NCBI GenBank assembly: GCA_002189035.1
Contig: NEEC01000017.1
Span: forward strand, 2,046,001-2,110,000
DNA from: Utricularia gibba
Lineage: Eukaryota > Streptophyta > Magnoliopsida > Lamiales > Lentibulariaceae
Length of the DNA: 64,000 nucleotides
Direction: 5' to 3'
Shown: one piece after another, positions 4,571 through 50,045 of the stretch
How the letters are laid out: each line of letters begins with the position of its first letter
Position numbering within the stretch: the first letter of the stretch is position 1
Notes under the pieces: generated by a model
Told to the model about the DNA's origin: nothing
The model's input: only the letters and a program-made list of their open reading frames with translations
Databases searched by the model: none
Position numbers and translations under genes: made by a program

Positions 4571-4834
4571 CTAATTGTGAAGAGGATCCGGGCAACTGGG
4601 AATACTCCGTTTATCATCTTCAACAAACACAAACCCGCCATCGCCGGCTGTGCTTTCACCATCGTGAGCTGAAGAAGCTGCTAGTGTTTTCCTGGAGCTG
4701 CTTCCCGGCAACGGGGGTGGCCCCGCGTCCCGCATCGGTGCCGCCGTGGAGGTTACCAAAAGATGTGTAAGCGAGAGTAGCAGAAGCCCGGCAGCCGAGC
4801 ATGGAAATGTTGTTTTGAGGGGCGAAAACGCCAT
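4571..4834 (-). CDS. CLE27: CLE27-type CLAVATA3/ESR-related peptide precursor
   Basis: Single-exon, 87-residue secreted peptide precursor. CLE peptides are cut from the C-terminus, hydroxylated, sometimes arabinosylated, and perceived by leucine-rich-repeat receptor kinases of the CLV1/BAM/PXY class. The ATG at 4834 starts MAFSPLKTTFPCSAAG followed by the hydrophobic stretch LLLLSLTHLLVTSTAAP, a clear signal peptide (residues about 1-32). A variable domain follows, and the protein ends exactly with the 12-residue CLE motif RSIPSCPDPLHN. Cysteine at motif position 6 in place of the usual glycine is the mark of Arabidopsis CLE27 (RIVPSCPDPLHN, recalled). The reading frame is open further upstream to 5104, but only the 4834 start places a signal peptide at the N-terminus. 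Confidence 0.93.
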   Translation of the reverse strand: MAFSPLKTTFPCSAAGLLLLSLTHLLVTSTAAPMRDAGPPPLPGSSSRKTLAASSAHDGESTAGDGGFVFVEDDKRSIPSCPDPLHN

Positions 4835-5324
4835 CGACGGCGAGGATAGAGCGAGGGAAAGAGAGACAAACAAATTGTCCGGGAAGGCCTGTTTTCGTTG
4901 TAAGAACGAAAAGCTAGTGGATTTTGAGGCGGGGCGCTTTATTACTCCCAGGAGAAACAGCAATGATATGAGAACCTTCCCAAGAATAAGACTCATTGAC
5001 CATTTCCTTCTAATTAGCTTCTTATAACAAATCCTGTTCAAATTGTGCTCATTTCGAATGTAATAATCCATTGAATTTTTAATGATATTATTTGTTTCAA
5101 ACACCTAATTATTATCATTTTACATTTCAATTCCTAGGAAAATAGTTTATTAGATAAGATTCCTCTATATCAATCGTCATTCTTACGAGAGATTTATGAA
5201 ATTTTTTTATGGTTTGGATTATTTTTTGTAGGGAAAACCGGTTATTACGTGGCATTCATTCATTGGACAATAAATAAGCATTAAATTGCAAGTTCTCCAG
5301 CTACATGGATTGCTTATATACTGT
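4835..5324. other. Promoter side of the CLE gene and 3' flank of the zinc-finger gene
   Basis: This AT-rich spacer lies upstream of the CLE ATG and downstream of the zinc-finger stop, both genes being on the minus strand. No regulatory motif is clear enough to report. Confidence 0.4.
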
Positions 5325-30643: not shown

Positions 30644-32352
30644 TCAAGATGCAAGTTGGGGAACTTGTCAACTCTTATGTTTTGTCCACTTCTCTGAGTT
30701 GGCATTGTAATGGTCATTTATCTCTATGTTCTCTCACTTGCGTGCTCTGAACACCCTGTTTTTCCTTCTGTACTTTTCTAATGGCTGCTGTCATCCTTGA
30801 TTTGACTGAGTCAGTCACATGACAATGGAAAAGTGGCCAGTTAAAAAATTTTGCGTGCGAAAGAGAGGAGGGTGGCCAGCGAACTGCAAACACAGCAACA
30901 CACTGAAGAATCCGACTGAAATCAATGAAATGTGTACCAACTAATCAGCAACACACAAAACAACAAACTCACTAACCAACAACCAAACTAATCAATTTTC
31001 TAAGGAACCAACAATTTTCTACCACCTGCACATGTAACGCAGCTAGGTGCCCTTCTACCCCACCTACCTCTGCACACTGCATTTTCAGTGATCCCTCCAC
31101 CTATCTCTCTAGTTTCACTACGATTCTACCTTTTAGGGAATACTGAACTAACCATTTTACTTTTTATTCAAAACACAAAACCAACAAAAAAAAAAAATTG
31201 TTGTGGAATCAGCCAAGGAAGATGGTAGCCTGGTAGGTGTGGCTTGAGTGAGTCTGGTGGTAGATGGAGAGGATGATGAAGGAGATATTTAATCAGTGTA
31301 GATTATTTAGAAAACAAAATATTAAATACTATGGTGAAAAAATTTGTTATAATTTATCAAGTGTTGTGAGATTAGTCTGCAAATGCAGTCTCATAATATT
31401 AATCACATATGTTTAGGGAATATTCAAATTCAAATCTTAACGTATGATAAGAATGAAATCTTAATTAGACTCTTGCATGTAGCATAGAACATTGCAAATC
31501 TAATTCATATAATTCATTCAGAAACATTGGCATAATCAGGATTGAGATCAATAATATCATTTATATTTTTATATCAATATTTATATTCTTTTAAAAATTA
31601 TAATTTATATTTATATTTATAATAACAAATTTAGTGGTACATGTAGCAATTTTTTTTTTTTTTGAATGGTGTCATATGACACCCCTCCCTACCATGTACC
31701 TCCACCCCTCAAACTATAAAACATAATGAAACTTCATCTATTAATCACTCTTGATGCTCAATAATCATTTCAAGTTCTGCTTGTTTCTATTTTAATGTTT
31801 AAAAAAGATATCACACTTGAAATAATTCCAAGTACAAACAAATATCTGTGATAAAAAAAAATAGTATAATGCTTCTTGTTTTTAAAAAGCTATAAGTTTG
31901 TAACTTTTGTTTATTGGAAGGGCTTTGTTCTTCATTCCTTGTCAACATAATAATATAGAAGAGTTCACTTACCATTTATTCTCTATCACAATTAAGATAT
32001 AATCTACGTTTCTTGTATATTTAAGTTTCATACACATTATATTCTTGATTTTAATATCGGGGACCCCGGTCTTCAGATTCCATACATTTTTCTAAGATGT
32101 TTAGACATAAAAAAAAACCAGGTTGTGACATTATCGAATGGGCTAAACTTGATGGGGCCAGAAAACAGTTACCGCAAGGTGTCTCTTCTGGTTTTTTTAC
32201 AAGAATAGTAGGGTTGTTGTATGGCATGAACGTGGTTCTTTTGTCTCCCCCAATATTCCTCACCAGCCAGTCAACCTTCCACACTCCACCCATCACTCCA
32301 CCTGCTCTTCTTTCCCCTGAGCTGCTGCCATGACTGCCACTCCGAGGTTGTC
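30644..32352. other. AT-rich spacer upstream of MIR858
   Basis: Strongly AT-rich from 31260 to 32060 without recognisable genes. The last 300 bp before 32353 should contain the proximal MIR858 promoter. Confidence 0.45.
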
Positions 32353-32360
32353 TATAAATA
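32353..32360 (+). promoter_or_regulatory. TATA box of the MIR858 transcription unit
   Basis: TCTATAAATACACATTC is a canonical TATA box about 180 bp upstream of the mature miR858 sequence. It predicts a start near 32385 in a C+T-rich leader. Confidence 0.7.
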
Positions 32361-32421
32361 CACATTCACTTCCCGTCCCTTCCTTCAATCCTCTTCTTCT
32401 GTCTGGTTGCCATCTTCCCAG

Positions 32422-32469
32422 ATGCCAATGCCGAGGAAAACAACTAAAGAAAAGCGAAGCAGCAGGTAA
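32422..32469 (+). CDS. Short ORF at the head of pri-miR858, candidate miPEP
   Basis: This is the first ATG after the TATA box. It encodes a 15-residue basic peptide, MPMPRKTTKEKRSSR, before a TAA. The primary transcript of Arabidopsis miR858a is known to encode a regulatory peptide (miPEP858a) that raises its own miRNA's expression. The peptide seen here is shorter and I cannot claim sequence similarity. Its position, about 60 bases 5' of the foldback, is right for such a peptide. A donor-like GTAAAG overlaps its last codons, so a splice there is also possible. Translation is unproven. Confidence 0.3.
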   Translation: MPMPRKTTKEKRSSR

Positions 32470-32490
32470 AGGAGAGTGGCTTCTCTGCGG

Positions 32491-32639
32491 GGCTCGTTGA
32501 GGGAGCAGTCTGGCTTGTGGTTCGCCTTCGGTTCGTTGTCTGTTCGACCTGATGATCGTCCCGGAACCTTTGATCACTCAGGTCGATCGGACGACGAATC
32601 TAAAGCATCGTAAGCCGAGGACTGCTGGCTTGCCGAGCC
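32491..32639 (+). ncRNA. MIR858: MIR858 microRNA precursor
   Basis: A foldback of about 150 nt. The 5' arm from 32532 contains CGTTGTCTGTTCGACCT, the core of plant miR858. Bases 32532-32552 pair with 32578-32598 with a single mismatch (32543 with 32587) and two G-U pairs. The loop lies around 32558-32571. The lower stem continues with AGCAGTC (32504-32510) facing GACTGCT (32620-32626), and GGCTCG (32491-32496) facing CGAGCC (32634-32639). Pairing of this length and quality meets plant miRNA criteria. miR858 cleaves transcripts of R2R3-MYB factors (MYB11/12/111 and relatives) and so tunes flavonol, anthocyanin and phenylpropanoid output as well as growth. No protein-coding frame explains the conservation. 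Confidence 0.9.
32532..32552 (+). ncRNA. miR858: Mature miR858 (5' arm)
   Basis: 21 nt beginning with T, as preferred by AGO1, and matching the miR858 family over its full length in its longer-known GACCTGA-ending form. The passenger strand with two-nucleotide 3' overhangs would be 32580-32600. Confidence 0.85.
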
Positions 32640-35506
32640 ACTGTATGGAAGCCGCGATCCGTTTTAGGCATCAACGCCTCGATGGTGACGGGCTTCTGCG
32701 AATCGGGGCCAGCCCCAGATATGCTGACAGGAAGATAAGCCCACCGTAGGGGCGATACTAATCCAATCCATCACTTGATAACCTCTGCATCGGTTTTGGA
32801 GATAAGCCCAACGCCTAAATTTTTAACTGATGGTTTCTGATTGAATCAACTGAAACCCTAAAATTGATTTAGGGTTTTGATCAACTTTTAAATATGGACA
32901 ATACCTATTTATCAATCAATTTAATTGATCCAATACTTACGTTTTTAATTAATTTAAGATGAATCTCAAATCGATTATAAATGGGAAATAAAAAAATATT
33001 GATTAAAATGATGGTGTTAAATCTTGTATGAAGTATTTTTTCGAATATGAAAAACCTTGATTGATAGAAATTCCAAGAGTAAGTGATAAAAAGAAACGTA
33101 AAATCGTAAGAATTGATAACTAAAATGACGTATAAAGTATAAACCGAAAGTGAGGAGTATGAGAGGAGAGATGAGGGGAAACGGACAATGGAGGGCGACA
33201 AGGGAGAGCCCGCAACTGGAACATGATTCTGTTTGGCAGCGTATGTGGTGTCGCGATAAGGCAAGGGCGGGCCCCCGCCACCATGTCTTGACAGCAACAC
33301 ATACCTAAACCACCATACAACAAGTGGAGTTAAGAGCAGTATCATCGCTGTCCTCCCACTTCCAGCCATGCCCCCATTCCGGACCCCAATCCCGACCCGA
33401 CCCGACCCGCATGCAAGGCAAGGCAAGGAACACACGCTTGGTTTCAAGGAGAGGAGGGGGTGGACGCTATGGAGAGATGGATTAGAAATCTGACCATGTA
33501 TCAAATATTGTGTTATAAAAATTGAGTGAAGATTGTCGGTGTCAGATCAATATAAAGAATTTAATTTTCAAGTTTCAAAATTAGTCATAGGCCTTTTAAT
33601 TTACATTTTTTGTAAACACTTTATACTTCAACTTATAAAATTACATATTTAACACTTCATGTTTGAGTTTTCGTTGAACTATTTTGACAATTGTTTTGGT
33701 ATTTTTTTTATATATTTAACCTCTCATTTTTAATTTATCATTTCTGGGTATTCGTTGCATATTTAATTTCTCATGTTTGATTCAATTTTTAAAAATTTTG
33801 AAAATTGTTTGGGTTTTCGTTAAATGGTTTTAATAACTTGGGTTGTCTTTTTTGTAATTTTAAAACTTGGGAGTTAGATATTTTATATTAACTGAAACTT
33901 GAGGTGTTATTTTTACAATTTTCTATATAAAAATTATTATGTATACTGTAAATTTTTTTAACTGGATGTTTATTACATAGTGTATGAACAGCCATTTTTG
34001 TAAAGGATACTAGGTATGGGTAAAGTCAAGGAAGTGAAAAAAGTAGATTCTGTGGGTGTGGACCCTGGACCCTGGACCCCCTCCTCCTAGTTGAGGAATT
34101 GGGATCATATATAATTATTCCAAGTATCGGGAGGGAATGCCACGCCCTCTCAAGTGTCCGACACGCCAAGTTGAAAAGATATCCATGACTGATTCCTCCA
34201 TCCATCCCAACACATGGCGTGGGGGCATCGGGTCGGGGATGAACCGCATTACACCTCACAGCTGGCCGCGACGGGCCCCTTCCCCTGTATTCACGCCGTG
34301 GCCTCGGCCCGGCGGCTCCCCGCAACCACCACCTGACGCGCCCCAGCAGCAGGTCTCTGGCTACACCGGCCAGTCCATGGGCTGACCATTCTTCATATAT
34401 GTGTAACCAATCATTGTTAGTTGTGTATTCATGGTGACACTCGGGCACCCGCATGCCACCTTAGAGATGTGCCCAAATGGAATTGATCTTAGTGGAATGA
34501 TGCGCACGGGGTAATGCAATTTACCAGCACCTTCCATGAAAGTGAGTAATTAGTTACCGTATCCTACATTAATTATGGAAAGATAATGAATGTGTTTAAA
34601 TAAAGGTACCCATTTAATCTTCCATGAGATTCTGTTATAAGAAGTTTAAAGTTAAGTATATTAGATTGGAATAAAGTTAGTATCAGTGATCTTCTGGAAA
34701 AATAACTCAAAGATAATAACAACGTTAAATTATATAAATTGAAAATTCTAAATGAATAATATTGTATAAGATGAACACGAGTCGTTACACAGTACATGCT
34801 CACAAGCACTCAGATTGCATCATATCTACCATGTCCCTTCCACTTTGCCTCGCATACAATTAGGAATCCATGTTGAAGCTCAATCTAGGAGGGCAAATAA
34901 TTTCAAATATTAAAGTTCAACGTAAAGGGAATAAAGACCAATCGTGTAAATAAAATTTAATTTTAATAATAGTCTATTAAATATCAACGTTAATAATTCC
35001 TTTTTTTTTAATAGGAAGGCGGGAGCCATAAGCAAGAACCGTCACTGCACACAAAGTTGTAGGCATGTACTAGTCCATAGTAAAATCCGGAGGACGTGTT
35101 GTTCCCCTCCAAAACGCCGTCGTATTGAATATGATGTTTCCCCAAAAGATAACATTAAAATCATTCAGCCCTAATCTATTTCGGTGCTGAATGTGCGTAC
35201 CTACTTGTATATTATAATATATTTTGTGTGTCAGTAACCACCTCTTCTTTCTTTCTATTCACTGAAAATTGAATGTCCACAGACAGTTGAATTTATAGAA
35301 GACAGACAGGAAAAAAACAGCAATATATTTCATAAAATAGATGAATTTAAAGGAGGAATTAATAAAGCCATGCCATTAACCAGCTAGAGTCTAGAGATCA
35401 GGAAACACAGAAGAGACATGAAGACCAACCAGATATTTGAGCTCCCATTGTGGTTGGGGGATGATATCACATGAGATCGTGTCCCTGTTAGTTTCTGCTG
35501 GAATTC
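32640..35506. other. Spacer between MIR858 and PIN
   Basis: Mostly AT-rich, with two GC-rich islands at 33180-33430 and 34130-34390 that carry short frames on both strands. None shows a family motif. A minus-strand frame around 33366 contains a hydrophobic segment (ILLLTPLVVWWF), but its exon context is unknown. Confidence 0.35.
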
Positions 35507-37848
35507 TTACAGTCCCAGGAGAATGTAGTACACCAAAGTGATGGGTAGGGCGATCAGCATTCCGAATATGACCCTGATGAAAGCAAACAAACAGATGAAG
35601 GATTTGAGCATCCAGAACTTGTCATCTGATATTGTGACTTTTTCTTACGCGGTGCTGAGAATGGCAGGGTGAACGTTGTACTCTTTGGCGAACACGAACG
35701 GGACGATCCCTTGGGGAAGCGCGGCTTGGACGATGGCCACACGGAGGAGGGTGCCACGGAGTCCCACGGCAATGGAGGAGATGGCCATGACGGCGGGACC
35801 GGTGAGGAACCTGATGGCCATGGCGAATACGGCCATCTTGTTGCCGCAGGCGATGATGTTAGGCTGAAGGGCCATGAAAAGACCTGCCCAAAAGGAAACA
35901 TACACCAAGCAATTACTGCTGCAGTTCCGGTCAATTAACCCCCAACCACCTCAGACGGGGGGCTGGGTGTGGGACCCATGTAGACTGATTGACAGTTAGG
36001 GGAGTGGGAACTTTCAGAGAGAAAAAAATGGCCGGCCGGCCGTGATTAATCTATGTCACGGACCTAGACTGAACATGGCCATTCCGAGGCCGGCGTCGGA
36101 GAGGATGGAGATTGATTTCTCTACTATTCTGGGCATGTGGACATTCCACCTGCATAAAGCCAACTTATGTTAATAGTGTTGGAAAACGAGAGAGATTGTG
36201 TTTGATGTCTTGTACCAAGAGAGAGAGTAAATTACCGAAACGCGACTAGTGACCAAATTAAGCCAATGAGGCTGGAGTATGTGTTGGGGTTGCGGATGAG
36301 CTTACGCCAAACCATTATCAGGATGAGGCGAGTCATTACACTGCCCGGTGGCATGTGGTTTCGGGTAATGGGGTCATCCCCGCCGCCGGTTTTCCGGTCA
36401 TGTTCCGTGGTGGTGGAAGTGGAGCCCATTTTGGAAGTCCCGATGGGGATTTCTTTGTCTTTATGTTCCTCGGGCTGCCGCTTCGCGAAGCTGAAGTCAT
36501 CATGGTGAGTTTCTCCGGCGGCTGAGGAAAGCGGTGAATGAGGGAAAAGGGATGATTAAGAGAAATGAATTACAGAGTTGTTGTTACCTTTGGTTTCTCC
36601 ATTATGGCGATGGTCGTTAGCCAGCAATCTGATCTCCTTTGCGCCTTGATCAGATCTCCCCGGTTGTTCAAACTCAGGAACGTTGAAAACATGCAGGCCG
36701 CCGCCGGTGGCAGCTTCAGAAGCAGGGGAAGCGCTTGAACTCCATACGAACATGTGAAGCTCCTTAGCATCGTGATTAGATTTCGCGATCTGTTGAGGCT
36801 GCTGAGATTTCACGGGCTTTGGCGGCGCACCGGAGGAGATTCCGGGATTCGGTGCAGGATACGAAGTCACCGATGGCGCCGCGTAGTAACCAAATTTCGG
36901 GGAATTCGTTACCGCCGGCGCCGCCGGAGCAGAACTTTCCTCGAAATTCGACGGCCGTGGAGTCGGCCCACGCGATGATTGCACAGAGTACATATCGGCA
37001 GCATTGAAATTTGACAATCTTCCCGTATCGGAGTTGCCGAAATTCGACAATCTTCCGGGGAACCCCATCATCGAATAGAAATCCCCTGGGTTAAAATTCG
37101 AACCCCGCGGCGTCGCATTCCGCGAAGAACTCAAGCTGTAAATTTCAGCCCCGGTCAAATTCGACGGCCGGGGCGTAATCCCATGGATAGATCCATGCCC
37201 TAGAGATCTCCTCGAAGCATTCGATTTCCTCACTGTAACGTGAAGCTTGCCGTCGCTCCCAATCTCCGCGTCGGTTTCCAGAAAATCCTGGCCGTCGAGT
37301 GAAACGACATCGGAATCAACTTTAAACGACACAATCGACGCGGCCGTCTCCGGGAACTGCTCCGATATCAGCATTTTCGCACCACGGTACTCAAACAAGA
37401 AGAGCAAAAGCGTGTACCATATGATACACTGCAGCACCACGATCTGAACCATAAGGCTGCCAGAATATTCTCCGTACATAGCGATCAGCAACGGAATCCC
37501 CATCACCAGAGTGTTGGGCAGCGTGGCGAGGGAGAAAACGGTAATCGACCATTCTAGGTTCCCTCTTCTACTGAAATTCCCCCAAATCAACAGCAGGAAA
37601 AGCATGATCAATTTCTGAACAGTGTCCGCAGCTATGAACCTAAAATTCATCTCATAGATATTGTTCTGGGAAATGAAATGGAAGGACAGGAGCGGCACCG
37701 CAAAGATTGCCACGAAGCGGTTGATTCCGGAGCACTGATCCGGAGTGAAGATCTTCCACCATCGCACCGAGCCGTAGGCCAGTATCATGGCGACGTACAG
37801 AGGAATCACCGCCGTTAGTACGACGTACAGATCGTGCAAAGTAATCAT
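35507..37848 (-). CDS. PIN3: PIN-type auxin efflux carrier, long hydrophilic loop (PIN3/4/7 clade)
   Basis: Five exons, 36588-37848, 36236-36521, 36064-36149, 35649-35883 and 35507-35573, encode 644 residues with all phases agreeing. PIN proteins export indole-3-acetate and set the direction of auxin flow at the plasma membrane. N-terminal helices start [20 protein letters not shown], then [20 protein letters not shown], and include the [10 protein letters not shown] motif. The central loop has the canonical phosphosite contexts NASRRSLG and [27 protein letters not shown] and [13 protein letters not shown], all targets of PID/WAG and D6PK kinases in the family, and [16 protein letters not shown]-terminal helices include [55 protein letters not shown] and end YYILLGL-like [21 protein letters not shown] and SVRWWKIF place it with PIN3/4/7 rather than PIN1 or PIN2. 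The element GRLSNF is duplicated within 20 residues in the loop. Confidence 0.95.
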
Positions 37849-40593
37849 CCTTTCCGGCGGCCGGAGAAGTTCGCGAAGCGGAGGAAAGGGGAAAAAGTAG
37901 TTATTCAACTGTCACAGAAGAGGATGATGGCGTCCACTTTCTGCTCCGATTCAGCACCTCTCGACAGGGCAGAGGAACTGAGTCATGTACGCGACAACTC
38001 AGACACTCCATTGCATTTAAAGTGAACAAAACAAAACACCACTGAATTTTTTTTTATCAAAATAATATAATTACAAAATCAAAAGGATATTTATATTATT
38101 AAAATGGGTTGGTTTAAAATATTTAATGGCGAGGAATTTCTCAAAAATATTTAATTGAAATATTGAGGGAGTGACAAGTGGGCGATGGCGAAGATAAATA
38201 ACCTCGTGTGCCAACATTTCACGTGCGGCAGGCCACGAAGTCGTCTACGATTTGCTGGTCCACAAATAGCGATGCACCCTGCCGTACCGGAACCTGACGC
38301 TGCAACTTGCCCAATAAACTCGATTTGTTGTAATATTCATTAATGATCCTAATATTTAAATAATAATCTAGTTTATTTACTTAGATCATGACGTCATTAA
38401 AAAATTATATGAACATAATACATCATGACCCCATATAGTTTTTTTTTTATTCTGTGGACATTCTTATGAACTATATCCTTTATTATTATTATTTTTTACT
38501 AACTCATGATTATTTTTTTTAATTTTCCTTAAAAGCATGATCCTTTTATTTTATAAAGGAATATAATACTTTTCTAGGGTTCAAAAGTAGAATGTATAAT
38601 TTTTAATAATAAAAAATATTCCAAAATTCGCTTCATGTGTTTGTAAGATACTAATGATCATGCAAAGGAAAAAGGGGGTTTGCCTTTACCTCATGTGGGG
38701 GCGCCCCCACCAAACCCACTACTTCTTGGGGTATTTGGTAGAGTGGCCATTTGATGATATGTTTTAACACATTCAGGGTCAGATTTGTAAATAGTCCCTA
38801 ATTACATTTTTTAGCAACATGCATTTATTGTGAATTATCCATTAAAATAAGGTAACTTTTTGAAAGTAACTTTTTCCCAAATATAATCAATTTGTGTCTC
38901 AATAATTATATTTTATTTCCAAGTTTTATCCAATTTCTTTCTATTATGAGTAATTTTTTAGAATTATTCTAATTCTATTAAAAAATTTACAATTTTTAGA
39001 GTTATATGCAAATGCAATATTGAAATTTATCAAAATTTTGGATTTCAATTTTTTTCTTTTTTTAAATTTTCTTAAAATTTGGTAATATAATAAAACGTGG
39101 TTCTATTTTTAAGATACAACATGCTTGGTCAAAATATGTTATTCAGACAATGTTAGGCGAGTCAATGCGTTGACTGTACCTAATTTTTGAAGACTAGTTA
39201 CCACCTTTTGGATTTTTATGACTTCTGATGTGTAGCATTGGTAAAAACATGTTATTTATTATTTTAAAAATTAACTATTTGTAGTATGTATTTTTCATAA
39301 TATTCAATAATAGTAAAATTTCAAATTTTATTCTTTGTACTATATTTTAATTTTTTATTAAATGAATAAAAATATTTTTAAATCCCAATTTTTTCAAGTA
39401 ACTAAATGCATGGAACCAAAATATAAAGATGAAACTTTGGACCGTTTAAGAAAATGGTCGTGTCGGCCCAGTGGGCCCCATTTCTGGCTATCGTTGGGCC
39501 GACCCATTTTCTGATTTCATGCGCTCTTTGTTCTTCTTTTGGAAGCCCACATGTTACTTTTGAAACCCATAGTTTTATGTCACGTTTAAAATTATGGAAT
39601 ATAAAACACTGTTTTGATAAAATTTTCAAATATATTTTTATTTTTTGAAAAGTGAAAATTACTTACTTGGAGAATATAATTTCATTTACGAAATTATGTT
39701 ACATTATATCCATAATTTTATGTCTATTTTTATAAAAGGTTGCTTTCAGAAAAGTAAAAATTTTCCAGAACCATCTATAAATGTTAAAGAAATTCTGGTT
39801 AAGTCTGTTGGTTGGATTGGAGTATGAAAAAAGGAAATTAAAGTAGGAGCTTAAGTGTAGTAATGAAAACAATTTTAATGCAAATCAATGGCGCCAGTAA
39901 GCTGAAGGTGGAGTGAAAAAGGTATGAGTTTTTCCATTTTTTATTTTGTAGTTTGTTGCGGATATTGCGGTCTGAAGATTTGCTGAGGTAGAGTGCCATC
40001 TCGTTTCATTTTCAGTTTGATGCTGTTTCTGTATTGCACCGTGCAGGTCTTAATCCGTCATGATCTCATCTGTTTTTTTTTTTTTTTTTTCTGATTCGGT
40101 TTTTTTGTTTGATGCATTGCCTGCCAACTGTTCGATGGAATGCCACTCACACACACACACAGTAGTTCTTCTACCTTTACTCGTCTTCTGAATAATTTGC
40201 TTCAGACCAGGACTGTGGGTTGATGCGTACTTACCCAGTTGAGAAGAATTGATTGTGAATCGTGAAAGGTAGGAGTTTGTGAGGAATCGGAGAGGAAAGA
40301 TTGGATCTTGGGAGGATTAAGCATTATGATAGTGTGTTTGACGGTCAAACCATTTTGAGGAAGCAAACAAAGGATACCCTAAATCTTGTTATACCCCGAA
40401 ATCCTATTGCCTCACTGTGCCCTGTATTCTTTCTGCAATTGTACTCCTCCTCCGTTCGGGCACGTGGTTTTCCGCTGTTATCACGCGCCGGCATCCGCAT
40501 TTTTGGCTGAGATATCTTCTGCATTCGCCGTCCTGAATTGTGTGCTGATGTTGGCCGTGACACTCCATTTGTTATAATGTGAAAACTTGCGCG
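37849..40593. other. Divergent promoter region between PIN and O-fucosyltransferase genes
   Basis: AT-rich for most of its length (38040-39900). From 39900 the sequence resembles a 5' leader with pyrimidine runs, a CA repeat near 40150 and a spliced or uORF-containing leader of the plus-strand gene. No other gene is supported. Confidence 0.4.
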
Positions 40594-45005: not shown

Positions 45006-46479
45006 TCAAATGCCTCTAACTGGGAGGAACTCAAAGAAGTAATTGGGCACCGATGCGGCTGCTCCGTACTCTTCCTCCTCCTCCACCCCATCTGCGGTGG
45101 CGCTCATCTCTGTCTCCTTGATCGGAAAAAGCTCTAGTGTTTGAGTTTCCTTTATCTCAGAGGTGCCAGCAGCTTCAAAGGGTACGAGTTTTTGCTGCGT
45201 GAACATGCAAGATGGTAACTCTGATGGCCAGCAGGCTTCAGATTCACTGCTCTTCACTGCTGCAATTTGTTGGTGTAAATCACCCTGCCACCCCTTTTGA
45301 CAACGCGGCAAAGAAAAGGAGGTTAGTGAATGAATGAATGAATGAGCAACAAGTATTTCTTTTCTCATCGCTTTGTTCAAGAAAATTCTTAAAAACTCTG
45401 GTGAAAACGCAGCTTTTTAGTAGTCTCTTGCCCTTTTTCCATCATGCAAAAGCCTTCCCCCCTTTGCATTAAATTTTCTGGAGACTTTTGGCTACAGATA
45501 ATTAGGCCATAATTTTGCCTCTGCCTAATGTTTTTAATTGCATGTGGTCAAGTCAGATATTGTGTTCTGTGCAGTAAGGTTACTTCACATCACAATTCAC
45601 ACATTTGCAGCTGGATTATGTTTCCATTGTCTTACTCTAACACCCTTCACCAACTCCCCCTCCCTCCTAAGGTTGACATTACCCTAATCTGAGACTCAGA
45701 CAAGCCCCATAAACCTATGTTTGTGTGGTTTGAATTTACAGTAGGAGTGATCCACATTGTAAAGATCTTGTTGTTGTATTAATGTAGAAAAGGCATTACC
45801 TTCCAAGATAAGCTGCAGTTGGAGGCAGTGGACCATCTTGTAGATTGATGCTCGCTGAAGCACTTCACTGATCCTGGAAGAAAGCAAATTCTTGTGATGC
45901 ATTGGTAACTTTCTGCAGTAACAGAGAATCTTTGTGATGCATTGTTGTCGTTGTTACCTGATTGATGATGGGGTTGTTCGAGGGGGTCAAGTTCTTGCAT
46001 TTTCTTAGCAGCCAGGAGCTCAAGGCGGCGCCGTTTCCTCTGCTTCTCCCTGGCCTTGTGATTCTGAAACCAGTAGAAAACATTCTTCCCCTCGATCCTC
46101 CCGAACCGGCGCAGCCGCGCCACGATCTGCTGTATTTGTTCAGCAGACGGCGTTCGCACACCGTGCCTATACATCTCCTCCAAAGCTTGCAGCTGCTCCG
46201 GAGTAGGACTCCATCTCGCGCTCACTAATGGCGGCCCGGTGCATGCATTCCTCTCTGCCAAATCAAACCATTCAATTTCCGATTCTGCTGTCACAAGAAA
46301 ACGTCCGGTACAAACTTACTCAACGGTTGGTCCCATGCAGGGAGCCCAAGATAAGGAGATGGCTTTGCATGGAAGGTGTTACTGCATCTAGACATCCCTC
46401 CCGGTGGCGGCGGCGGCGGAGAGACGACTTTGCAGTGGAGGTGATCGTCACTTTCGAGCTCGAACTCCGGCATCCTCAT
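45006..46479 (-). CDS. WOX: WUSCHEL-related homeobox factor, WUS-box class, WOX1/WOX6-like
   Basis: Four exons, 46320-46479, 45958-46254, 45800-45873 and 45006-45293, give 272 residues with agreeing phases. The homeodomain, about residues 66-128, runs from [20 protein letters not shown] and [10 protein letters not shown] to [20 protein letters not shown], with the extra loop residues of the WOX class. The C-terminal region carries the repressive WUS box TLELFPI and ends [10 protein letters not shown], like the (F/Y)(Y/F)EFLPLKN ends of WOX1, WOX3 and WOX6. WUS-box WOX factors recruit TOPLESS-type corepressors; WOX1 and its orthologues promote blade outgrowth and WOX6 acts in ovules. Homeodomain and tail fit WOX1 or WOX6 best, but I cannot separate them. 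The ATG at 46479 is the first in frame; a GTAAGT donor and a 65-nt intron precede the homeodomain exon. Confidence 0.88.
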
Positions 46480-49048: not shown

Positions 49049-49790
49049 CCAGTCGCCACACCCTACAGACCCGCAGGCAGGTAAATATTAGCATGTAACG
49101 TAGAAGGTAAGTATTTTATAATGTCTGAAGAAGGTTTGATGGCTCATCTTTGCAAAGGGAATCCAGCGGCGACATTCAGCCAGCCGCCATTAATGCATTC
49201 TCCCGCACCACTCCTTTCAACCTTACAGTTGCATTTGTTTTACAGCACACTTCAATTCTCTGCAGGCAACACGCCATGTGTGTTGACTACACAGGCATAG
49301 TGAGCAGATAGATGCTCCAGCACTACACCCAGATTTCAACAGTTGGTTTTCTTATCAGTCCACTGTTGAGATTGGAGGGGTGAGGGGTGTGCGGGAGAGT
49401 TGCTGTCTGGCGTCCACATCGGCAACTATGTCTGATCTCTGAGGTTTCTGTTGTTGATAGTGAGCTGTGTTGGAATTGAACTGCGAATCCCAGATCGAGA
49501 GGGAGGAGGAATGTGTGATGAATTCTGGGTATGAATCGGAGTTATTGGTGTGTTGCTTATTAGGTGGTAATTAATTACTTCTGTGGTCAGCATCATGTAT
49601 GCTCTAGAGGTATACGTAAGGTATTGGAAACGTCATTTCAATGTCTGCGCCCCCGTTTTATTTCTCTGAAGTTTCTGCAGTCTTGGTGCTCGCCGGAATC
49701 TGCTATCTCTACTCGCAAGTACTCTGCTGCGTCATATATATTATATACATAAATTATCCACCCTTATTGTCAGTGAAGCCTCAGAAAACG

Positions 49791-50045
49791 ATGGTTTTTT
49801 CTTCGGGGAGAAGGGGAGAGGGAAGAAACCCCATTTTAGCAACTCTGGTTTTCTCAATTGGGCTTCTGCTATTCCTCTCTGTGATTGCCTCCGCCGACGC
49901 AAGGGCAGTCACGGAGCAGCGCCTGCGGTGGACGCCGGCAAGGAAGGATCGGTTCTTTACTCCGGCGGCGGATCCCCGGAACCCAGCTGCCATCGAGGAG
50001 GAGAAGAGACTAGTGCACACGGGGCCGAACCCTCTTCACAACTAA
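49791..50045 (+). CDS. CLE16/CLE17: CLE16/CLE17-type CLAVATA3/ESR-related peptide precursor
   Basis: Single-exon 84-residue precursor. A basic start (MVFSSGRRGEGRNP) is followed by the hydrophobic core ILATLVFSIGLLLFLSVIAS, a signal peptide likely cut near residue 35-37. A variable stretch follows (RLRWTPARKDRFFTPAAD), and the protein ends with the CLE motif RLVHTGPNPLHN preceded by a basic residue. HTGPNPLHN is the version found in Arabidopsis CLE16 and CLE17 (recalled). Both prolines that are hydroxylated in related peptides are present. The peptide is expected to be secreted and sensed by CLV1/BAM-type receptors, with activity in meristem or organ growth. The ATG at 49791 is the only start that puts the signal peptide first. 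Genomic position fits CLE17. Confidence 0.93.
   Translation: MVFSSGRRGEGRNPILATLVFSIGLLLFLSVIASADARAVTEQRLRWTPARKDRFFTPAADPRNPAAIEEEKRLVHTGPNPLHN

What the first reader, a model, noticed from the sequence alone, without database searches (positions are those of the whole stretch)
32491..32639. A MIR858 gene in a stretch that has no protein-coding gene
A foldback of about 150 nt carries the full miR858 sequence on its 5' arm, with 20 of 21 positions paired and a stem that continues to the base (GGCTCG with CGAGCC). A TATA box sits 180 bp upstream. Protein-based annotation would miss it. miR858 controls R2R3-MYB activators of flavonol and phenylpropanoid synthesis, so this locus is a regulatory hub beside a PIN gene.
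Basis: partly seen in the sequence, partly recalled or inferred. Interest (0 to 1): 0.8.

Follow-up and report, generated by a model that had tools for sequence, protein, structure and literature searches.

The report
Real miR858 gene with short loop
The stretch is a genuine plant microRNA gene, MIR858, a known kind of regulator of MYB pigment and phenolics genes; what is mildly unusual is how short its hairpin is, because this family is usually reported with very long hairpin loops.

Summary
The 21-mer at 32532-32552 is letter-for-letter the miR858 printed for apple, raspberry and jujube. It lies on the 5' arm of a hairpin with 20 of 21 bases paired and a star at 32580-32600 with exact 2-nt 3' overhangs. 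Folding far exceeds shuffles (z -7.8 inner part, -8.3 whole stem). The assembly holds one other exact copy of the 21-mer, on contig C142, in a collinear block with PIN, CLE-like and zinc-finger counterparts. Stem arms are kept while the flanks show no detectable similarity. The genome is probably Utricularia gibba (inferred), where miR858 is already reported among five families giving 94% of miRNA reads (PMC8333044 passages). So this is an ordinary, conserved, probably active MIR858 gene. One point of interest: mature and star are separated by 27 nt here and 145 nt in the sister, whereas published MIR858 precursors are quoted as 350-5500 nt. MYB targeting is predicted, not shown. Nothing ties function to the PIN gene.

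The parts
32353..32360 (+). TATA box TATAAATA, presumed core promoter of the pri-miRNA
   Evidence: one of 3 on the + strand of the window; function inferred
32476..32655 (+). whole MIR858 hairpin (180 nt); lower stem 32476-32531 with 32601-32655
   Evidence: z -8.26; arms kept in the C142 copy
32532..32552 (+). mature miR858, 21 nt, 5' arm
   Evidence: same letters in PMC7284492, PMC5100886, PMC8438446
32553..32579 (+). terminal part between mature and star, 27 nt (6 further base pairs closing a 12-nt loop)
32580..32600 (+). miR858 star, 21 nt, 3' arm, 2-nt 3' overhangs
35645..37911 (-). neighbouring PIN-type auxin efflux carrier exons (not part of the miRNA gene)
   Evidence: PF03547 in 35645-35950 and 36556-37911

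Best explanation
This is a functional MIR858 gene. RNA polymerase II starts downstream of the TATA box, the transcript folds into a 180-nt hairpin, DCL1 releases the 21-nt miR858/star duplex, and AGO1-loaded miR858 cleaves mRNAs of R2R3-MYB factors in the stretch that encodes the R3 motif GRTDNE, damping flavonoid and phenylpropanoid genes. It is one of two MIR858 genes kept in a duplicated block. Shown here: sequence, fold, star geometry, sister copy, synteny, presence of MYB sites. Inferred: transcription from this locus, DCL1 processing, loading, cleavage of named MYBs.
For: Exact known miR858 letters on a strong hairpin with exact star geometry. A second exact copy on C142 in a collinear block: C2H2 zinc finger (-), MIR858 (+), PIN (-), CLE-like ORF (+), same order and strands. 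Mature strand 21 of 21 identical between copies, star 16 of 21, lower stem arms 43 of 57 and 41 of 55, while the 100-nt flanks give 45 of 109 and 47 of 111, no better than the upstream flank shuffled (mean 0.45, 200 shuffles). Of 74 base pairs mapped to the sister, 48 are unchanged, 13 kept by a one-sided change, 3 by changes on both sides, 10 broken. The reverse complement of the mature strand reads SGRTDNE; the GRTDNE-coding 18-base pattern occurs nowhere else in the window on either strand. 47 sites encode PGRTDNE in the assembly, reversed-pattern control 0; 13 of 47 score 5 or less; all 14 of the 14 loci fetched show GRTDNE[I/V]KN[Y/F]W in frame, and 2 of these 14 were put to Pfam, both Myb_DNA-binding. 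U. gibba sRNA-seq: miR858 among five families with 94% of miRNA reads; DCL1, SE, HYL1, HST1 and AGO1 kept (PMC8333044 passages).
Against: No small-RNA or degradome reads could be mapped here. The mature strand is the same in both loci, so published abundance cannot be assigned to this locus. Species is inferred. MYB sites show no excess of good pairing: 2 of 47 score 4 or less against a mean of 4.3 in 2000 codon-column shuffles. Pairing retention between the copies is only weak support: over all 26 changed pairs 16 still pair, which exceeds random substitution only at low transition weights (P 0.003 at weight 1, 0.07 at 2, 0.52 at 4, 0.94 at 8, mutated sides as observed); the lower stem alone does better, 13 of 17 (P 0.0007, 0.013, 0.15, 0.54).
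Confidence: 0.92

Rival explanations
1. A decayed MIR858 copy: sequence and fold remain, but transcription is lost and the C142 sister makes the miR858 seen in this species.
For: Two loci share the same mature strand; leader and 3' flank show no similarity to the sister; the published reads cannot tell them apart.
Against: Mature strand 21 of 21 conserved; pairing in the window copy is better than in the sister (20 of 21 against 19 of 21); a TATA box is in place here and none of three TATA patterns occurs in L007 4550-4860 upstream of the sister.
Confidence: 0.06
2. A chance or MYB-derived inverted repeat that mimics a miRNA: for example an inverted fragment of a MYB exon.
For: The mature strand is antisense to a MYB motif; the reverse-strand ORF over the hairpin spans it.
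Against: That reverse-strand ORF (32293-32577) has no Pfam match; the lower stem is conserved in a second locus; z -8.26; mature letters equal a known miRNA.
Confidence: 0.01
3. The pri-miRNA also encodes a regulatory peptide (a miPEP858 type), so the locus is partly coding. This could hold beside the best explanation.
For: A 15-codon ORF at 32422-32469 lies in the leader; miPEP858 is discussed in the literature (28 papers, 15 listed, listing only).
Against: The sister leader has ORFs of 78, 77 (nested), 31 and 21 codons that look unrelated to it by eye; the leaders do not align.
Confidence: 0.05

Closest known systems
miR858 family, apple/raspberry/jujube form UUCGUUGUCUGUUCGACCUGA
   Same: 21 of 21 letters; MYB R3-encoding target site
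   Different: Only the mature letters were compared; I had no precursor letters of other species
Long-loop MIR858 precursors of seed plants (Wang et al. 2024, not held; known here through PMC11062420, whole text, and PMC11945104, passages)
   Same: miR858 in a long stem that reaches well below the duplex; stem kept, loop not
   Different: Published precursors quoted as 350-5500 nt with loops of about 300 to over 4000 nt; here 180 nt with 27 nt between mature and star; sister copy 299 nt with 145 nt
U. gibba miR858 small-RNA family (PMC8333044, passages)
   Same: Probably this same gene or its sister
   Different: The passages seen give the family only, no coordinates; supplements not opened

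Membership tests
MIR858 | mature sequence of miR858 | tested here: met
MIR858 | hairpin with mature on an arm, few mismatches, 2-nt 3' overhang star (plant miRNA criteria, recalled) | tested here: met
   20 of 21 paired, one mismatch, no bulge in the duplex
MIR858 | complementarity to R2R3-MYB mRNAs at the GRTDNE-encoding site | tested here: met
   13 of 47 sites score 5 or less by a recalled penalty scheme; but no excess over codon shuffles
MIR858 | 21-nt reads from both arms of this locus | not testable with these tools
   no read data; family-level reads in PMC8333044
MIR858 | degradome-supported MYB cleavage in this species | not testable with these tools
   no degradome data
long-loop MIR858 precursor type | loop of about 300 nt or more, precursor of 350 nt or more | tested here: not met
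   27 and 145 nt between mature and star, stems of 180 and 299 nt (ranges)
long-loop MIR858 precursor type | transposable element in the loop | tested here: inconclusive
   the 145-nt stretch of the sister copy matches only itself at E 0.01, but that search skips very common words; the 27 nt here were not searched
miPEP-encoding pri-miRNA | conserved short ORF in the leader | tested here: not met
   comparison by eye with one sister copy only

The most novel reading that the evidence does not exclude
In this very small genome both MIR858 genes have lost the long loop that the family carries across seed plants (27 and 145 nt between mature and star against a quoted 350-5500 nt precursor range) while the 56-57-nt lower stem below the duplex was kept: a natural loop-deletion series showing that the stem alone suffices. 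The stem length (base to mature 5' end 56 and 57 nt, close to 15 + 2 x 21) would fit stepwise DCL1 cutting from the base up, which predicts further 21-nt duplexes from 32490-32531.
Probability: 0.35. Interest if true: 0.45.

Novelty: new member of a known kind. Interest (0 to 1): 0.28.

Why it matters
It is a clean annotation of a regulatory RNA gene that Pfam and Rfam scans missed here. The two sister genes with short and medium loops give a native test of whether the long MIR858 loop does anything, in a species where miR858 is reported as highly abundant.

Tried and rejected
Rfam: nothing at gathering in the window; in 31400-33600 at E up to 1 only MIR395 (20.4 bits against 56) and mir-4018 (20.3 against 66, lying on the miR858 duplex at 32529-32601), taken as chance family labels. 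miPEP: no conserved leader ORF. Transposable element in the sister loop: no other copy found, with the caveat that very common words are skipped. Bacterial-type promoter scan: not meaningful for a plant, nothing used. Selection for better MYB pairing: not seen. Pairing retention: my first test used the lower stem cut at 32518, a boundary I chose after seeing the table (12 of 13 changed pairs kept; P 0.00005 to 0.21); on the whole lower stem it is 13 of 17, and on all changed pairs 16 of 26, which is no better than random at transition weights of 4 or more with sides as observed. I lowered confidence from 0.94 to 0.92 for that. Third miR858-like place, C1:7045629-7045645 (-): one mismatch to a 17-base core; folded with up to 300 nt upstream or 1200 nt downstream, 12 of 21 bases pair, all within the 21-mer itself, so no MIR858 hairpin was seen, though loops over 1200 nt were not tested. 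Read as a target on the other strand it has 3 mismatches, is outside any MYB frame, and its 67-aa ORF has no Pfam match; the reversed control also gave one hit: treated as chance. Species proof by matching published primers: passages of PMC7149871 and PMC10663240 gave no usable letters; a search for '518 contigs' gave nothing. Wang et al. 2024 is not held, so the loop ranges come from a commentary and a citing paper.

Full report
WHAT IS THERE. The 21-mer TTCGTTGTCTGTTCGACCTGA occurs once on the + strand of the window, at 32532-32552. In the minimum-energy fold 20 of its 21 bases pair; position 1 pairs with 32598 and position 19 with 32580, giving a star at 32580-32600 with the 2-nt 3' overhangs of a Dicer product. 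The inner fold, 32480-32650, has z -7.84 with 0 of 200 shuffles as good; the other strand is weaker, z -4.87. Refolding with more flank shows that the stem does not end at GGCTCG/CGAGCC but continues with pairs 32476-32484 / 32647-32655; for 32470-32661 z is -8.26, 0 of 200. So the hairpin is 180 nt, 32476-32655. TATAAATA starts at 32353, 179 nt before the mature 5' end.

FAMILY. The mature letters are identical to those printed for apple (PMC8438446, table passage), raspberry (PMC7284492, table passage) and jujube miR858b (PMC5100886, table passage). A full-text search for the letters listed 5 papers. No Rfam model matched the window at its gathering score, so an Rfam pass would miss the gene.

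THE GENOME AND THE SISTER COPY. The window lies in an assembly of 100,091,633 bases in 516 contigs. A search with a 17-base core, up to 1 mismatch, gave 3 places: this one, C142:1741114-1741130, and a one-mismatch place on the minus strand of C1. The C1 place showed no MIR858-like hairpin within 300 nt upstream or 1200 nt downstream, and the hairpin as DNA query did not reach it. The full 21-mer is exact at two places only. The C142 locus folds into a hairpin of 299 nt (L007:4856-5154); L007:4850-5170 has z -5.32, 0 of 100 shuffles as good, with 19 of 21 mature bases paired. Between mature and star lie 145 nt there and 27 nt here. I compared the whole window with 50 kb of C142. Collinear and on the same strands: C2H2 zinc finger (-), an 11.6-12.3 kb stretch, MIR858 (+), PIN (-), CLE-like ORF (+); the PIN exon is 80.9% identical over 1177 aligned columns. 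Other window genes (PPR at 14-16 kb, ABC transporter at 24-27 kb, HMA-domain gene at 30 kb, homeodomain gene at 46 kb, O-fucosyltransferase and zein-binding genes) had no tblastn hit at 1e-5 in those 50 kb, so the block is partly fractionated or reaches further than I fetched. A duplicated segment, most likely from whole-genome duplication, is the plain reading (inference).

CONSTRAINT. Between the copies the mature strand is 21 of 21 identical, the star 16 of 21, the lower stem 43 of 57 and 41 of 55, and the 100-nt flanks 45 of 109 and 47 of 111, no better than the upstream flank shuffled (mean 0.45, 200 shuffles). Of 74 mapped pairs, 48 are the same, 13 are kept by one change, 3 by two changes, 10 are broken. 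Whether kept pairing exceeds chance depends on the assumed transition weight and on the stretch: 12 of 13 changed pairs in 32476-32518, a boundary chosen after looking (P 0.00005, 0.001, 0.03, 0.21 for weights 1, 2, 4, 8, sides as observed); 13 of 17 in the whole lower stem (0.0007, 0.013, 0.15, 0.54); 16 of 26 over all changed pairs (0.003, 0.07, 0.52, 0.94). Drawing the mutated side at random lowers these values. So sequence conservation of the arms is clear; covariation is at most weak support.

TARGETS. The reverse complement of the mature strand reads SGRTDNE, the R3 motif of R2R3-MYBs. The assembly search listed 47 PGRTDNE-encoding sites and 0 matches to the reversed control pattern. With a common plant penalty score (recalled scheme: mismatch 1, G-U 0.5, doubled at positions 2-13), 2 of 47 score 4 or less, 13 of 47 score 5 or less, 27 of 47 score 6 or less; an apple study or less cleavage-favourable (PMC3446319 passages; its score may differ from mine). 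I fetched 14 of the 47 (the 13 best and one at 5.5); all 14 read GRTDNE[I/V]KN[Y/F]W in frame, and the 2 put to Pfam are Myb_DNA-binding. By recalled motifs, L017 looks like the flavonol group (subgroup 7), L016 and L018 like subgroup 4 repressors, L012, L014, L020, L021, L024, L025 like bHLH-binding MYBs of the subgroup 5/6 kind; no tree was built. Against the idea of tuned targets: 2000 shuffles of the codons among sites give on average 4.3 sites at 4 or less, more than the 2 observed. Targeting therefore rests on the protein motif and on the behaviour of miR858 elsewhere (degradome-supported MYBs in Salvia, PMC11069429 passages; and in apple).

SPECIES AND EXPRESSION. I infer Utricularia gibba: assembly size and contig count (match to the PacBio assembly from recall only), and contig C451 of 6,822,880 bases beside 'Unitig_8 (6.8 Mb)' in PMC8333044. 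Not proven by a sequence match. In that species the same paper reports that miR166, miR156, miR159, miR319 and miR858 made up 94% of miRNA reads, and that DCL1, SE, HYL1, HST1 and AGO1 are kept (passages; supplements not opened). So miR858 activity in this species is already in print at family level.

THE ODD POINT. A commentary on Wang et al. 2024 (PMC11062420, whole text) says MIR858 in seed plants comes from hairpins with loops of about 300 to over 4000 nt, with transposable elements found in loops of different taxa, and that the stem, not the loop, is needed for efficient processing; a second paper quotes a precursor range of 350-5500 nt (PMC11945104 passages). Both genes here lie below that range, and the sister loop has no other copy found in the assembly (which skips very common words). 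The same commentary mentions a previously identified short pre-miR858a in Arabidopsis, contained in a long one, so short forms are not unheard of. Among the rows shown by my searches (20 of 532, 17 of 17, 10 of 50) I saw no title or abstract on MIR858 loop length in Utricularia, but I could not read Wang et al. itself, and its survey may include this genome. Loop shortening in a shrunken genome is thus a reasonable but untested reading.

HOW IT PROBABLY WORKS. Pol II transcript from the TATA box, hairpin, DCL1, AGO1, MYB mRNA cleavage at the GRTDNE codons. The distance from stem base to mature 5' end is 56 nt here and 57 nt in the sister, close to 15 + 2 x 21, which would suit stepwise cutting from the base; this is conjecture until reads from the lower stem are seen.

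PIN AND HUB. The PIN exons are real (PF03547), but the adjacency is shared with the sister block and so is most simply inherited. I see no evidence for a functional link.

VERDICT. Observation confirmed, family call correct, hub claim unsupported, novelty low.

Noticed in passing
G000 (whole assembly): The miR828 22-mer was not found with up to 3 mismatches, although miR858 is present twice; this companion MYB-targeting miRNA may be lost, diverged, or hidden in gaps.
   Followed up: partly
G000:C1:7045626-7045646 (+), in L006: The best complement of miR858 outside the two MIR858 hairpins (3 mismatches) is outside any MYB frame; the reversed control also gives one hit, so probably chance.
   Followed up: yes
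window 4571-5104 (-) and 49620-50045 (+): Two ORFs end in CLE-peptide-like tails (recalled motif...PDPLHN and ...GPNPLHN); the second has no Pfam match but has a counterpart in the C142 block.
   Followed up: partly
window 45779-46315 (-): Homeodomain ORF (PF00046), WOX-like by eye.
   Followed up: no
L020 (C412) and L021 (C5, a 38-kb contig): The same MYB exon frame appears identically on both contigs; C5 may be a duplicate or alternative haplotype piece of the assembly.
   Followed up: no
window 31751-31838 (-): Weak MIR395 covariance match, 20.4 bits against a gathering score of 56; probably chance.
   Followed up: no
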